A stretch of 64,000 nt of DNA. It comes from Lutjanus erythropterus (lineage: Eukaryota; Chordata; Actinopteri; Lutjaniformes; Lutjanidae). Within the stretch, counting starts at the first letter, position 1; every line of letters begins with the position of its first letter. The stretch covers positions 27,079,933 through 27,143,932 of the forward strand of contig CM034595.1 in the NCBI GenBank assembly GCA_020091685.1. Direction: 5' to 3'. The notes beneath the pieces are model-generated. The model was not told the DNA's origin. It ran no database searches and was given only the letters and a program-made list of their open reading frames with translations. Below, piece after piece: positions 13,530 through 62,830 of the stretch. Both the position numbers and the translations under genes were made by a program.

Positions 13530-16399
13530 TAGTAGAGATTGCATCTTTGTTTAAAAATATGTAATTTGCAAAAATATGTAATTTTCAACATGCAGTTTAG
13601 ATTGACTAGCTGTCATCTTTAGAAAAGTTTATTCTATCTCCTTAACTTTGAGCAGAAATTATTCTCTAAACACACAAACCAAACTGTCCTTTTGAAGACT
13701 GTGATTATAATAGTGAGTCTACAGTGAGCTGTGCCTTGTAAGTCAGCAGTGTGTTGACGTGTTAATGTGAAATATCTGTGATTGAGTGTTATTGATCCTG
13801 TGCTGATTAGTAGGAGTGACCATCAGAGCAGCTTTAGTTAGTTCTGTCACTGGGACGAAGGAGACAGCACTCCTCCCCTCCCTGTCTGTTGAATAATCTG
13901 CTTACTCACCGGATGTGATTCACCTAACTAACTCTGTTAGCGAGAGGGTTCTGTTGTCTAAATGTTTGGTCAGTAATGTTGTGTAATGTTTGGAAAGTTG
14001 TGTGCTTGTGAGATAAATAACTTCATTTGAGCCTCGGTCTGGCTGGCTGCTTTGAAATCCTCATCCAATAAGTGGCTGAGAGGTCATTAGAAAAGGACAG
14101 ATATTTTTGCTTAAACAGAGTGACGTTATTGTTTTGGATTGTACCATGACCGCAGAGGATACACAATTCTGATTGGCTGAAGAGTATGTTTAGCTGTTGA
14201 GGAACATTTATTCCAAGACTAACAAAGTTTCTATTTATTTAAAGAACATACTGACCCAGATTATGACGAAACAATGTTAATATTATAATACATAGGCCTA
14301 CATTTTGATAGCTGTAAAGTGGCCATGATGATAGCCAGATTAATTCAACCCATACAATCATTGTAGTCTGTCTATTTTGCCTATTTTTTTTGGTGTCAAC
14401 GTAAATCATCAAGGATTGTTCCTTAATGAAAAGTGTTTGTTTACTAGAAAACTCCACTGTTTGTAATAAACCTAATAAATACATGTTGCTCCTTATATAG
14501 ATTTGCTAAACTATTATATCAAAATTTTTCTCTCTTTTTCATTACTCCCACCCTCCATTAAGTATTAGTCAGACTTAATGGCTCAGTATGCTTCAAACTA
14601 AGGGCTGGATTATACTCCAAAAAGTGTACATTGACAGCTGTGGATACCATGGATGCCTGTTCCCTCCCACCACATCTTTGCAATATCAGAATTTGAGAAA
14701 CTGACAACCATGCCCTTTTTCACAGTGATGAATGAGAATGTAATGCAGGATTTGAAGTTATCTGTCTTTTTTCATCCTGTATTCAGTTATGTCCATTATT
14801 TTGCAACACCATTAATGCCTTTGAGGAGAGACTGTCTGGGGTTTGTAAAGTTTATCCTATCTACGATGGAAAGCTTTTCACCAAGCTTATCCTGCCTTTA
14901 TGCTTCTGTGCTTTGACTGCTTATTCGCCTTTTCTTCCCCTGCTGCTTGTTTCAATTGGTTGTCTTTTTCTTCTTCTGTGTTTTATGGTTTATATGCACT
15001 TCAGCAGTGTAGCAGTGAAGGCCCTGCAGGTAGGCGTTTAGAGTTCATAAAATGAATAAAATGTTTTTAAGTTTCAATTTTTTGAGTTTTAAATTACCAC
15101 AAAATTACAACAGAACTAGCATGCACATGTCATTGTAAAGCAAAGCCATGTGATTAAAGTACATGTTATTCATTTACCTGTCCTACTTTAACAGGTGGTA
15201 CACCGTATTTGATGACCTGTGACGTTAAGATAGGAAGCTATATCTTATCATTGGTATGATTAGTCTGGTGTGTTGATTAGAGTTGTGATTAAACATTTGG
15301 GTGAGCCACAGAAGATTTTCAGACTTCAAATTGGGCCTTTGCAGTCTTAAGTTTGGGAATGGCTGCACTACACATTTGCATCATGACCTTCTGCAGTCAT
15401 CGGGAATGTGCATTGAATCCAAGCTCCCAGGAAGTGTGCAGAGCTTTGAACCAAATTGGACATAGTGGACAAACTGTGTAATGACAATGTCATGCGATGC
15501 ACATCAGCCCAAAAAAACTTTTTTCCCCAGAACTAAAGCCAGAAGCAGCTATTAAAGAGTGGATACATTTTTATGCAGCGTTACAACCCCCACAAAATGA
15601 CTTGTTTCACTATCAGGATTTGACCCATTTGGTCCAGTAACCGGAAATTAGCCAACTCAGCAGCGGAAGTCTCAAGTGGGCATGCTTTATGGGCTTTTTG
15701 ATACAGAAGCAATGAAATAAAATGAGGAATAACTGTTTGACTAAAATGGTAACCACACAATCTACACTTCAGACTACTCTTTCACACTATATGGAGTGCA
15801 AATGCCAAAGGCCAAATTTGTGTGCAGGTGATGCCCCAGTCCCTCCCATAAACTTATGTGGAAAACAGATCCATTGTCAGGTGACCTTTGTTGTCAAGGT
15901 TACAAAAATGAACACATGGTTGACGTTATGAAATTTTCGCAGTCTGCTTAACAAAACTCCTTAAGATCATGACTTGGGTCAAAATAAATACATATTCACA
16001 TACTGTAAATGAGGTAAGAGACAGAGGTAATGTAATGTTAAAACTTTATGCTAACTTTTGGTTTCACATGGACCACAAACTCTAGCCTCCTGGGTGAAAG
16101 TCCCATATTTCTTTGACCCATCCAATACCCCACCTCCTCCATATGCCAACTTTCTTGCTTTTTTTTGATGGGGAGGATTAGTGTATCCCCTGCAGACTAG
16201 ACTGGAGGTTTGTGGATTCGGCTGGTAGAAGTCCCTGTGCGCATGCTTTGTGAGCTACTGAGCAGCTTTCATAGAAATGAAATGAATTGAGGAATGAGGC
16301 CTACCTTCAATGCTGTATCCAGTTCTCCTTTAATGTTTTTTAATAGTCATGTATGTCCTTGTACGTGGTGGTGAAGGACAAAATGCAAAAAAATTTAAT
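13530..16399. other. Mostly unique non-coding DNA with a diverged duplicated segment
   Basis: No gene is supported. Two segments, about 15656-15730 and 16205-16290, share the order AAGTC, GCATGCTTT, AGCA and AAATGAGGAAT or its variant, suggesting arms or duplicates of one old element. The rest shows nothing I recognise. Confidence 0.4.
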
Positions 16400-16491
16400 T
16401 AGCTTTTTATGTGTGTATTTTGTCTGATCTGGGCAGCATAAAGCAGAGAAGCTGCTCTTAAAGTCTCTTAGACGGTTGCCAGACCAGACCC

Positions 16492-16514
16492 AGGTCAATG
16501 ACAGGTCATGACCT
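16492..16514. promoter_or_regulatory. Composite nuclear-receptor motif: DR5 plus IR0
   Basis: Three perfect hexamer half-sites occur in a row. AGGTCA at 16492-16497 is followed by a 5-base spacer (ATGAC), AGGTCA at 16503-16508, then TGACCT directly at 16509-16514. The first pair is a perfect direct repeat with spacing 5, the classic retinoic-acid response element (RAR/RXR). The second pair is AGGTCATGACCT, the classic palindromic thyroid/retinoid response element. All 18 half-site bases match consensus. A CCAAT core follows at about 16532 and a 17-bp palindrome at 16564. The motif is seen; receptor binding is inference. Confidence 0.7.
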
Positions 16515-16563
16515 CAGACAGAGCCCCTTAGCCAATGCTAATAGCCCCATCCTCCTCCTCAGC

Positions 16564-16580
16564 ACCGTCACCGTGACGGT
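16564..16580. promoter_or_regulatory. 17-bp perfect inverted repeat
   Basis: Arms ACCGTCAC and GTGACGGT flank a single central C. It lies 50 bp downstream of the nuclear-receptor motif. It could be a dimeric factor site; no specific factor is assigned. Confidence 0.5.
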
Positions 16581-16599
16581 CTCTGCTCCTCTCGCCTCT

Positions 16600-16760
16600 T
16601 CTCTTACTCTTTTTTCCTGTCTTTCTGTCTCTGGGTGCACTCTCCTCTCTGTGTTGCCCTCTCTTTAAACTCACCACTCAGTCCTTCCTCTGCTCTGTCT
16701 TTCCTCTTCCCCTCTCTTCTTTCCCTCCTTTGTGTTCCTTCGCTCCATGAAGAGGAACTT
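16600..16760. other. Pyrimidine-rich tract
   Basis: The plus strand is strongly C/T-biased (CTCTCGCCTCTTCTCTT and similar) from about 16570 to 16740. It may be a simple polypyrimidine segment or part of a promoter-like region with the motifs just upstream. No coding frame is recognised. Confidence 0.5.
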
Positions 16761-17385
16761 CCACTGCAGCTTCTATCCAGGAACAGGCTTCCACTGTGGA
16801 AACACAGCTAAATAACACCACACCGGCTCGCTTTCCACTCTGAGCAGGGGAGGGCGAGCAGGGCTTCATGTCACACACACACGCACATTTCCACAAACAC
16901 ATATACACAGAAGCACGTATACAACTCTTTTTTGACTCACACCGTATTATTCCTTTTCAAATAGCCTGGGAGCACATGCTTTTATGGACATTAGGGAAAG
17001 TTCTCCTTTTATCTCTCCGTCCATCATCAACGGCACTCCCATTCAAATTACAGCTGAGGATCCAGAGAACATCCGAACTGACTGCAACATGCAAAGTAGC
17101 GGTCTATATCTGTCACTGCGTGCGTGTTATTTCTGAGCTTCTCCTGAAAGACAGCTGCTATAATTGGCCACTTATCAGTATTAATGGACAGACACGTAGG
17201 TTGGCGCTTTGGGGAGAACACGCACACACACAAACACACGTGCATACACACACCCAGGAAACACAGGAAGAGTCATTATATTCAAAGCAGACAGGAATAG
17301 AAACAGAATACATGAGGTAACCACAGTGGCGTAAGCAGTAGCCATTACCTCAACAATGACCATGACCAGTAGTCTTCAGTGAGTC

Positions 17386-17578: not shown

Positions 17579-17615
<37 letters not shown>
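17579..17615. repeat. (TG)18 microsatellite
   Basis: A TG run of 37 bp; with the 17526 run it creates artificial open frames rich in Cys-Val or Thr-His. Confidence 0.95.
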
Positions 17616-17617
<2 letters not shown>

Positions 17618-18018
17618 GTGACGCCTTGGAAGCTCTCCTGGCCACGGCTGTGGAAATGCTCCACTGCCCCACTCTGCTCAGTGGGGACAGCGGTGGAGAG
17701 GCAGGCGGGTGGATGAATGGACAGGGAGCGGGGGCTCTGATGGCTGGATGGAGAAAGGGAACTGCTAAACTGTGGCACTGCCAGAAAGACAGTGGCAACA
17801 TGAGCGGGGAAAGTTGTGCTTACTCCAGCCTTATGTAAACTAGAGCTCCTCTGTTTTCACTTGTCTGCAAGGTTTGACTTGATATGACAGGCTTATGTCA
17901 TGTCACTGTCACAGCTCATTTTGTTCTTTGTTTTTTGTTATGTGACTGTTGCTGCATGTGTTCAGTGCAATATGGCGCTACTCACAAAAACAGGCAGATC
18001 AAACTTTTTAACTTCTTC

Positions 18019-32648: not shown

Positions 32649-33025
32649 ATAAATACATGTTCTAACTTTGTGACACCACAGAAATATGTGTTATCCACCA
32701 CCCAACCAAATGTGAATGATTAAAAAAAAAATAAAAAGGCTCATAAATTAGGTTTTAAAATCATGAGAGGATGAGCAGTCTTCTCTGCTCTGAAACACCG
32801 GTGGGGTCTGTCCACTCTGCCTTCTCAGACCACTACGACCAGACAGAAAGAGGCTCCATCTAGCAGCTTTATTGGACTTGTTTAGACATGTTTGCGATAC
32901 CAGAACCAGAGGATGCTGACCTTTTAACTCACTGCAAAACCAACTCGTTTCTCTCAGCCTGTAATACGATGGTACTTTTTTCTTCAGCATCAGGTTGTTG
33001 GAACTGAAGTGAGCTGTAACTGCTC
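32649..33025 (+). repeat. Interspersed repeat, family I, copy A
   Basis: Landmarks shared with 43303-43690 and 59078-59695 in the same order and orientation: CACCACAGAAA, a CCACCCAACCAAAT-type phrase, TCTGCTCTGAAACACC, TCTAGCAGCTTTATTGGAC, AGACATGTTTG and ACCAGAGGATG. The 3' part (GTTGTTGGAACTGAAGTGAG) is shared with copy C only. No coding frame; class not identified. Confidence 0.8.
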
Positions 33026-42639: not shown

Positions 42640-43302
42640 AGACATACACATATACACAATGGATGATCAGTGGGTCATTTTGAGATCAAAGCATTCATCA
42701 CAAGTGACTGCCCATTTATTAGAAGAAACAGACAGTGACCTCGTTATCAGTGCAGTCCTGTCAGTCAGCTGTTAGATGCAGCAGTTGCTTCTCTGTGGAC
42801 GTGAAGCCATCGCGTGCTTTGATTCTCTGAAGTAATGATGTCTGAAGCTGGTAAGAAGAAAGATGCAGCATCAGTGTGTGAACTTCAGCTGGACATACTC
42901 TTTAGCCAGTGTCTGACCTGCTTTTTGAGCTGCACAACTCTTTTAGAATCGGATTGAATTTCAGCTTTGACTGGCGTTTGACATACAGCGTGCAGAGGGG
43001 AGCGAGGACTGATCAGCTGCTCCTGAACGGCTTTCTGACATTTCAGAAATTTTGGTTGGCCATTGTCAGGCTGTTGCAAGTTGCAACTGTTAAGTTTCAG
43101 CACACATGACGGCACAAATGGTCAAGACAGCATATTTCTGCTTTATAGCATTATTGCTAGCAAACACATTTTTACCTGCCTCAGAGCCTTCAAACAAATC
43201 TTTATTCACAATTGTCAGTTCAATCACCAGACAAGCCTTTTTATTTTATATTTTATATACAGTGTGAGCACTCAGGTCATGACATGGATCTTGTAAAGCA
43301 AC

Positions 43303-43690
43303 ATTGAATGTGTGTTCTGAGTTTTTCACACCACAGAAACTTGTGGTATTAACCACCCACTCAAATTTGAATTATTAAAAAAACATTCTAAGTATGTAAA
43401 ATTAGGTCTCAAAACCATGAAAAAATGAGCGAAACATGAATGTCTGCTCTGAAATGCTGGAGGCCTGTCTGCTCCACTGTCTCAGTGTCCAACACCATTT
43501 TGACCTGAAAATGACCTGAAACATGTACGTTCTGTCTAGCAGCTTTATTGGACATGTCCAGACGTGTTTGAGCCACCAGAGCCAGAGGATGGTGACAGGA
43601 TGGCCATGGTACAGGTCTGCCCAAAAAATCCTGAACACAGAAACCATGAAAATTTACCTCCACAATTCAGTAGTACACAGTTCGTACATA
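43303..43690 (+). repeat. Interspersed repeat, family I, copy B
   Basis: Same ordered landmarks as 32649 and 59078: TCACACCACAGAAAC, AACCACCC, TCTGCTCTGAAATGC, TCTAGCAGCTTTATTGGACA, TGTCCAGACGTGTTTGAGCC, CCAGAGGATG. Its 3' end (AAAAAATCCTGAACACAGAA then ACCATGA) is shared with copy C. Confidence 0.8.
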
Positions 43691-59077: not shown

Positions 59078-59695
59078 CAATAAATGTGTGTTTGATGGGA
59101 CTGTCACACCACAAAAACATGTGCAATAACCACCCAGCCAAATCTGAATGATCACTAAGTATATAAAATTAGATCTTAAAATTGTGTGTGAGCAGTTTCC
59201 TCTGCTCTGAAACACCGCTCCGACCTTAACATGACCTCAAACACCCATCAACACCCACACCATCATCCAAAAAAAACCAAAACCAAAAACAAAATAAATA
59301 AAAAAAATACCCATCTAGCAGCTTCATTGGACATGTTCAGACATGTTTGAGCCACCAGAGACCGAGGGCAGAGAAAAGATGGTATGGTTTTGCCTTCTGT
59401 ATTTGGTTTTTGGAACTAAGTGAGCTAAAGTGAACCGCTGGGCTGATTTGGACTGAGAGAGCTGCTGAGGTAGTTCATAACTGACCATTAGGGAGGGTGA
59501 GCATAGGGGGAGGGGGTTTGTTAGCATGTTGGTTCATGGGGAGGTTATACAGTGCTGGGGGAATGATGGGTCCAGCAAGTCATGAGCCATGTTTCATGTT
59601 CACCCAAAAAATCCTGAACACAGAAATCATGAACAACAATCTAACGCCATGTTGTTCATTACTACATAGTTTTCAGTGTTTTAACATAACGTGTG
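59078..59695 (+). repeat. Interspersed repeat, family I, copy C
   Basis: The longest of three copies. It has CACCACAAAAACATG, AACCACCCAGCCAAAT, TCTGCTCTGAAACACC, TCTAGCAGCTTCATTGGACA, CAGACATGTTTGAGCCACCA, TTTTGGAACTAAGTGAGC and AAAAAATCCTGAACACAGAA. It joins the 3' parts that copies A and B each have separately. An A-rich CAAAAC stretch at 59270-59310 is extra. Confidence 0.85.
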
Positions 59696-62519: not shown

Positions 62520-62830
62520 CTTTGGGGGGGAGGTTTGTGACCACTTTCCCAGCTCTCCCTCGGGAGTCTGTTCCAGCTGCTGCTGCTCCACGCGGTCCCA
62601 AACCTCAAGCCTCCGACTTCACTGACCACGGCCGCAGCCTGTGTGCTGACATCACTGTCCAGGCTTCCACGCAAGAGCAGCTCAGACCAGTGCATACGCA
62701 GTCCTGCAGGGACGTCACAGCCAAGACGACTGACATGCAGACATGCTGATGTCTCTCTGTGGAAGTTGTAGTTCCCAGGGCCTTCTGAGTTGTAGTTCTC
62801 ATGGGTGAGGCATTATGGGTGCAGGACTTG
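62520..62830. promoter_or_regulatory. GC-rich block with promoter-like direct repeat
   Basis: This stretch is clearly GC-richer than its surroundings and has scattered CpG. AGTTGTAGTTC occurs twice, at 62764-62774 and 62788-62798, and GCATTATGGG follows at 62810-62819. GGGARTTGTAGT and GCATTRTGGG are parts of the ZNF143/THAP11 (SBS) promoter motif in vertebrates, with one and two mismatches here. Open frames on both strands (75 and 80 codons) show no domain. A weak promoter candidate. Confidence 0.35.

What the first reader, a model, noticed from the sequence alone, without database searches (positions are those of the whole stretch)
16492..16514. Perfect DR5 retinoic-acid-type motif fused to a perfect palindromic receptor motif
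Three exact AGGTCA-type half-sites lie in 23 bp: two in direct orientation with 5-bp spacing and the third inverted with zero spacing. DR5 is the textbook RAR/RXR site and AGGTCATGACCT the textbook palindromic thyroid/retinoid site. Sharing the middle half-site means the two dimers would compete. All 18 half-site bases are consensus, which is very unlikely by chance at a given place. The surrounding 16.43-16.58 kb is not in any repeat I recognise and also has a CCAAT core and a 17-bp palindrome, so it may be a real enhancer or promoter.
Basis: partly seen in the sequence, partly recalled or inferred. Interest (0 to 1): 0.72.

Follow-up and report, generated by a model that had tools for sequence, protein, structure and literature searches.

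The report
Chance-level hormone-receptor motif near nr4a3
A perfect 23-base cluster of three hormone-receptor half-sites really is present in a fish-like genome, upstream of what looks like the nr4a3 gene, but a nonsense control motif clusters about as often, so without conservation or binding data it is most likely a harmless accident of sequence.

Summary
The window lies between sec61b and an NR4A gene, best read as nr4a3; the motif is about 26.6 kb from a CRE-bearing, promoter-like stretch that I assign to nr4a3. No second copy of 16335-16800 was found, and this exact combination occurs once in the 937.6-Mb genome.

That does not make it functional. Perfect DR5s number 590 against 511 for the reversed control. 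A third half-site within 20 bp of the palindrome is found at 5 distinct loci for 112 palindromes, all at spacing 0-5; the reversed nonsense motif gives 3 for 45, also all at short spacing. The 23-mer itself reads as an imperfect tandem duplication (AGGTCAATGAC/AGGTCATGAC), which turns IR0 into DR5 in one step.

Best reading: a neutral, binding-competent cluster (0.68); a functional distal element for nr4a3 remains possible (0.20). Conservation could not be tested. In passing: a dispersed repeat in the window carries DR5-like and p53-type full sites; the latter number 783 genome-wide against 3 in the control.

The parts
16492..16514 (+). Composite of three perfect half-sites: DR5 (16492-16508) and IR0 palindrome (16503-16514) sharing the half-site 16503-16508
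   Evidence: only DR5+IR0 example in the genome
16492..16512 (+). Imperfect tandem duplication AGGTCAATGAC / AGGTCA-TGAC (10 of 11 aligned positions, one extra A); likely origin of the DR5 spacing
   Evidence: read directly; neighbouring CAGAC words at 16480, 16485 and 16515; inference
16532..16536 (+). CCAAT core inside the imperfect palindrome TTAGCCAATGCTAA (16528-16541)
16564..16580 (.). 17-bp odd-centred palindrome ACCGTCACCGTGACGGT holding two CRE-type half-sites (CGTCA, TGACG)
16245..16334 (+). Fragment of a dispersed repeat ending about 158 bp left of the motif; 8 other places found
   Evidence: 74-89% identity

Best explanation
The 23-mer is a single-copy, probably neutral cluster of consensus nuclear-receptor half-sites in the sec61b-nr4a3 intergenic stretch. 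It most likely arose when a chance AGGTCATGAC(CT) palindrome underwent a short (10-11 bp) tandem duplication; a period of 11 is what turns one AGGTCA into a DR5. As DNA it should bind RAR/RXR, TR/RXR, COUP-TF-type and NR4A-RXR dimers in vitro, one dimer at a time because the middle half-site is shared. Shown here: the sequence, its copy number, its place and its background rate. Inferred: the duplication origin, binding in vitro, and the absence of function in vivo.
For: Perfect DR5s are barely above the reversed control: 590 against 511. They make 4.0% of the 14,916 AGGTCA-N(0-20)-AGGTCA pairs against 4.8% for an even share, though DR1 inflates that total (51 of the 100 rows listed). Triples around the palindrome occur at 5 distinct loci for 112 palindromes (spacings 0, 1, 1, 2, 5); the nonsense control gives 3 places for 45, spacings 2, 3, 3, and one of those (TCCAGTACTGGAGTACTGGA) is plainly a GTACTGGA duplication. 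The spacer ATGAC repeats the TGAC that follows the second half-site, about a 1-in-128 coincidence if two registers are allowed (inference). The motif lies 26.6 kb from the nearest stretch that I read as a promoter, in DNA without a CpG-rich stretch.
Against: The exact DR5+IR0 form is unique in the genome, with a Markov expectation of only 0.02-0.05. AGGTCATGACCT is commoner than its control (112 against 45). AGGTCA pairs of all spacings together exceed their control 1.7-fold (14,916 against 8,844), and if DR1 is left out at its share of the listed rows, DR5 (590) is above the mean of the other spacings (about 365). The triples sit at spacings 0-5 and none at 6-20. All 18 half-site bases are intact in what would otherwise be drifting DNA. 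The place is intergenic, upstream of a nuclear-receptor gene, where distal enhancers are plausible.
Confidence: 0.68

Rival explanations
1. A functional distal retinoid/thyroid response element of nr4a3. RAR/RXR on the DR5 drives retinoic-acid-dependent transcription, while TR or RAR dimers on the overlapping IR0 exclude it, so the site reads the balance of ligands; CREB-type factors at 16564-16580 and NF-Y at the CCAAT could cooperate.
For: Exact consensus; unique composite; no second copy found; intergenic position upstream of a gene with NR4A-type zinc finger and ligand-binding exons. RAR/RXR binds both element types (PMC12489474 passages). Zebrafish RAR ChIP gave 2848 robust sites, only 8% of them in promoters (PMC8608873 passages).
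Against: Background rate like the reversed control. No match for nr4a in the main text of the zebrafish RAR ChIP paper (its supplements were not searched). IR0 is stated not to act as an independent RARE. No conservation or chromatin evidence is available here.
Confidence: 0.2
2. A site for other dimers of the same half-site. NR4A2- or NR4A1-RXR heterodimers on DR5 would give rexinoid cross-regulation within the NR4A family, or COUP-TF/TR2/TR4 dimers, which tolerate many spacings (recalled), would repress.
For: NURR1-RXR binds DR5 (PMC10419244 passages); the neighbouring gene is itself an NR4A gene.
Against: No NBRE, NR5A/ERR, RORE, ERE or DR1 signature at 16440-16600, so nothing favours an NR4A monomer. 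That NOR1/NR4A3 itself does not pair with RXR is recalled, not checked. Same background objection.
Confidence: 0.07
3. The functional part is CRE/bZIP-like (TGACCTCA at 16509-16516 plus the CGTCA/TGACG palindrome at 16564-16580) and the hormone half-sites are incidental.
For: CRE half-sites on both strands near the motif; the presumed nr4a3 promoter is CRE-rich.
Against: TGACCTCA departs from the full CRE by one base in the core CpG; only half-sites are present.
Confidence: 0.03

Closest known systems
DR5 retinoic acid response element (RARB2, CYP26A1 type)
   Same: Two RGKTCA hexamers in direct orientation with 5-bp spacing
   Different: Both half-sites are AGGTCA rather than the AGTTCA or GTTCAC written for the two DR5 examples tabulated in PMC4490549 (passage); no response, binding or conservation known
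IR0 / TREpal palindrome (IR0 RAREs of Trim16 and Tr2-11 in PMC4490549; the synthetic TREpal is recalled)
   Same: Two hexamers inverted with no spacer; here exactly AGGTCATGACCT
   Different: Shares one half-site with a DR5; IR0 is stated not to act as an independent RARE (PMC12489474)
Composite three-half-site elements: composite DR8 of Mafa and Nrp1 (PMC4490549) and the cNRE with Hexads A, B, C (PMC10995137)
   Same: Three hexamers within about 20-30 bp, so that dimers can compete or combine
   Different: Those use other spacings and diverged hexamers and, in the cNRE case, have transgenic evidence; here arrangement only
Alu-borne DR2 RAREs (PMC1785376)
   Same: Perfect direct repeats of AGGTCA-type hexamers spread by a repeat, partly through CpG deamination; a parallel to the window's second DR5 at 43501-43517
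   Different: The main motif at 16492 is not repeat-borne as far as searches show

Membership tests
DR5 RARE | Two RGKTCA hexamers, direct, spacing 5 | tested here: met
DR5 RARE | Occupied by RAR/RXR | not testable with these tools
   no ChIP data for this genome; the zebrafish RAR paper has no nr4a hit in its main text, supplements not searched
DR5 RARE | Drives retinoic-acid response | not testable with these tools
   needs a reporter assay
DR5 RARE | More frequent than chance, or conserved across species | tested here: inconclusive
   Frequency: 590 against 511 reversed control, so class-level enrichment is slight. Conservation: no relative's genome is held (note)
IR0 / TREpal | AGGTCATGACCT, zero spacer | tested here: met
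IR0 / TREpal | Bound by TR or RAR dimers and ligand-responsive | not testable with these tools
   no binding data
Promoter | CpG-rich or TSS-proximal position | tested here: not met
   CpG o/e 0.28 at 16251-16750, no CpG-rich stretch between -7.7 and 25.2 kb; promoter-like CRE cluster assigned to nr4a3 at about -10.15 kb; no convincing coding stretch at 10-20 kb. TSS positions are inferred, no transcript data
Distal enhancer | Open chromatin, H3K27ac or reporter activity | not testable with these tools
   none available
NR4A elements (NBRE, NurRE) | AAAGGTCA, or everted TGACCTTT-n6-AAAGGTCA | tested here: not met
   no AAAGGTCA at 16440-16600 on either strand, which also rules out the NurRE form there
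Repeat-borne response element | Motif lies inside a multi-copy repeat | tested here: not met
   no second copy of 16335-16800 found (the tool skips very common words); against the DR5-bearing repeat the motif aligns only at E 0.12 or weaker

The most novel reading that the evidence does not exclude
The 23-mer is a ligand-exclusive switch for nr4a3: RAR/RXR on the DR5 and TR or RAR dimers on the overlapping palindrome cannot sit together, and NR4A-RXR dimers can use the same DR5, so vitamin A, thyroid hormone and the NR4A family would meet on one shared half-site. A one-step tandem duplication would have made a DR5 from an existing palindrome, a direct route to a new hormone input.
Probability: 0.06. 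Interest if true: 0.55.

Novelty: new member of a known kind. Interest (0 to 1): 0.2.

Why it matters
If functional, it would link retinoid and thyroid signals to an immediate-early nuclear receptor gene through one shared half-site, and show how a slip of 10-11 bp can create a hormone input. If neutral, as I think more likely, it is a useful caution: even 18 of 18 consensus bases, found once in a genome, do not stand out once a reversed nonsense motif is counted in the same way. The novelty label refers to the sequence match only (a consensus nuclear-receptor site cluster); function is not shown.

Tried and rejected
Repeat origin of the main motif: rejected. No second copy was found outside 16245-16334. 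Against the DR5-bearing repeat, 16340-16800 gives nothing below E 0.01: the best is a 14-bp match at 16684-16697 (E 0.010), and the motif itself aligns at E 0.12 or weaker.

Coding or structured-RNA explanation: no Rfam match in the window, no tRNA, no convincing coding stretch (weak candidates such as 17614-17811 and 62525-62740 were not pursued). Pfam covered only part of the window: 1-20 kb on the plus strand and 10-20 kb on the minus strand, with one match below E 1 (DUF4577, E 0.22, under its cut-off).

Conservation in other fish: not possible; no relatives are held for this genome (note).

DR5 in the dispersed repeat as a selected site: rejected. Its 17 columns rank 182 of 246 windows for conservation among 20 copies (half-site columns 0.850, all columns 0.905), and a perfect DR5 is present in 4 of 20. 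These are the best 20 of the 39 other long matches, so the sample leans to copies like the window's.

Not answered: counts for AGGTCATTTTCAGGTCA and for AGGTCA-N(0-20)-TGACCT-N(0-5)-TGACCT. Orders of three half-sites other than AGGTCA-N(0-20)-AGGTCATGACCT were not counted. Whether the three control triples are copies of each other was not checked; their spacers differ.

Literature: searches were seen as listings. Passages (not whole texts) were read in PMC8608873, PMC10419244, PMC11376212, PMC4490549, PMC1785376, PMC10995137, PMC12489474, PMC5007497 and PMC3485254. Among the 20 of 572, 20 of 45 and 12 of 128 papers listed no title names a retinoid element upstream of NR4A3; that is no proof of absence, and most subscription papers are not held.

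Full report
WHAT IS THERE. The plus strand at 16492-16514 reads AGGTCA ATGAC AGGTCA TGACCT. The first two hexamers form a perfect DR5, and the second and third form AGGTCATGACCT, a perfect IR0 palindrome. They share the half-site at 16503-16508. No NBRE, NR5A/ERR, RORE, ERE or DR1 signature lies at 16440-16600 (the patterns are recalled).

WHERE IT LIES. The window is G000:C5:27079933-27143932 of an unnamed 937.6-Mb genome. No convincing coding stretch was seen in it (Pfam on part). With 100 kb added on each side, a minus-strand gene to the left has an exon at -22.1 to -21.2 kb (window coordinates) whose C-terminal end matches the NR4A2/NR4A1 zinc finger best among solved structures (E 1.6e-12) and Pfam zf-C4. 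Three further stretches to its left match the nuclear-receptor ligand-binding domain: one above the Pfam cut-off, two weakly. Against recalled human sequences, three of four exon matches score higher with NR4A3 than with NR4A2 (101 v 94, 84 v 81 and 49 v 37 bits) and one lower (83 v 92 bits), so the choice of nr4a3 rests also on the neighbours. To the right, recalled human SEC61B matches three exons on the minus strand at 84.07-86.31 kb (100, 82 and 76% identity over 28, 39 and 34 residues), and at 92 kb a Glycos_transf_1 exon reads like ALG2 (name recalled). The names STX17 and ERP44 to the left and TMEM245 to the right are recalled from the look of the fragments; above the Pfam cut-off only a thioredoxin match for the second bears on them. 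The order resembles the human SEC61B-NR4A3-STX17-ERP44 neighbourhood (recalled). At about -10.15 kb a TGACGTCA with further CRE-like sites and a TATA-like word looks like an NR4A promoter (inference; another CpG-rich stretch lies at -8.5 to -7.7 kb). The motif is 26.6 kb upstream of it, in the sec61b-nr4a3 intergenic stretch.

IS IT A REPEAT. A genome search with 16250-16800 gave 9 matches: itself, and 8 places that match only its left end, up to 16334 (74-89% identity). The motif is about 158 bp outside that fragment. The tool skips simple repeats and very common words, so single-copy means no second copy found.

IS IT MORE THAN CHANCE. Locally yes: none of 2000 simulated windows had three perfect half-sites in 23 bp, and the exact composite is expected 0.02-0.05 times per genome. 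Genome-wide it occurs once. The better yardstick is real DNA with a motif of equal make-up. (a) Perfect DR5: 590 against 511 for the reversed motif, both far above the Markov expectation of 112-178. Among all AGGTCA direct repeats with spacing 0-20 (14,916, against 8,844 reversed), DR5 makes 4.0% and an even share is 4.8%. DR1 inflates the total (51 of the 100 rows listed); leaving it out at that share, the mean of the other spacings would be about 365, and DR5 is then above average. (b) The palindrome: 112 against 45. (c) A direct third half-site within 20 bp of the palindrome: 7 places, 5 distinct loci, spacings 0, 1, 1, 2, 5; the reversed motif gives 3 places for 45 palindromes, spacings 2, 3, 3. 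The rates per palindrome, 5 (or 7) of 112 and 3 of 45, are alike, and both prefer short spacings. Clustering of this sort therefore looks like a general property of this genome rather than something special to receptor half-sites. The numbers are small and the comparison uses one control motif.

ORIGIN. The 23-mer aligns with itself as AGGTCAATGAC followed by AGGTCA-TGAC and CT: 10 of 11 positions with one extra A. CAGAC words flank it (16480, 16485, 16515). A slip of 10-11 bp at a chance palindrome makes DR5 in one step; one of the three control triples (TCCAGTACTGGAGTACTGGA) looks like the same kind of event. This is inference.

HOW IT WOULD WORK IF USED. [quoted passage not shown] NURR1-RXR also uses DR5 (PMC10419244, passages). 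Three-hexamer elements are known (composite DR8 in PMC4490549; cNRE in PMC10995137). With a shared half-site only one dimer can sit at a time. None of this was tested here.

A SECOND DR5, AND A BY-PRODUCT. The other perfect DR5 in the window (43501-43517, minus) lies in a dispersed repeat. Six other places with the same 17-mer, taken from the 100 rows listed, all share flanking sequence with it. Three copies lie in the 264 kb examined, all in the window, and a genome search gave 2882 first-look candidates, of which 40 were scored. In the 20 copies sampled the DR5 is perfect in 4 and its columns are not specially conserved (rank 182 of 246). Left half-sites are AGGTGG in 6, AGGTCA in 5, AGGTTG in 4, AGGTCG in 1 and others in 4: AGGTCA and AGGTTG could both come from AGGTCG by CpG decay, as described for Alu DR2 (PMC1785376), but the commonest form, AGGTGG, could not. 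Unexpectedly, 9 of those 20 copies carry an intact p53-type full site RRRCATGYYYRRRCATGYYY. The genome holds 783 such sites against 3 for the reversed control; of the 50 sites listed, 32 have the exact spelling AAACATGTCTGGACATGTCC that is commonest in this repeat. That the rest of the 783 lie in this repeat was not checked. A zebrafish transposon with p53 sites is in print (EnSpm-N6_DR, 210 copies, no significant similarity found in medaka, fugu, tetraodon and stickleback; PMC3485254, passages), so the kind is known; whether this family has been described was not established.

VERDICT. Observation confirmed; interpretation partly supported. Most likely a neutral though binding-competent cluster.

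Noticed in passing
43343-43669 (-), 32689-33018 (-), 59126-59454 (-): Dispersed repeat family with 2882 first-look candidates genome-wide (40 scored); 9 of 20 copies sampled carry an intact p53-type full site, and the genome has 783 strict RRRCATGYYYRRRCATGYYY sites against 3 for the reversed control. Possibly a second, independent fish repeat that spreads p53 sites, after zebrafish EnSpm-N6_DR (PMC3485254, passages).
   Followed up: partly
32874-32893 and 59329-59348: Two strict p53-type full sites (RRRCWWGYYY twice, no spacer) in this window, both inside copies of the repeat above, in the region upstream of nr4a3.
   Followed up: partly
43501-43517 (-): Second perfect DR5 of the window, repeat-borne; the same 17-mer with shared flanks at six other places.
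   Followed up: yes
43274-43285: AGGTCATGACAT, an IR0 palindrome with one mismatch, about 216 bp from the second DR5.
   Followed up: no
Reason not examined.
   Followed up: no
genome-wide, rows on C1: AGGTCANAGGTCA (perfect DR1) makes 51 of the first 100 listed AGGTCA direct repeats, some in overlapping 7-bp tandem runs; such runs inflate counts of DR1-type sites.
   Followed up: no
G000:C13:1946733, C15:30371678, C15:37863285 (L043-L045): AGGTCAATAGGTCATGACCT in three copies of one stretch, 93-98% alike over about 620 bp: a duplicated DR2+IR0 composite.
   Followed up: partly
16245-16334: Fragment of another dispersed repeat directly left of the motif; 8 other places at 74-89% identity.
   Followed up: partly
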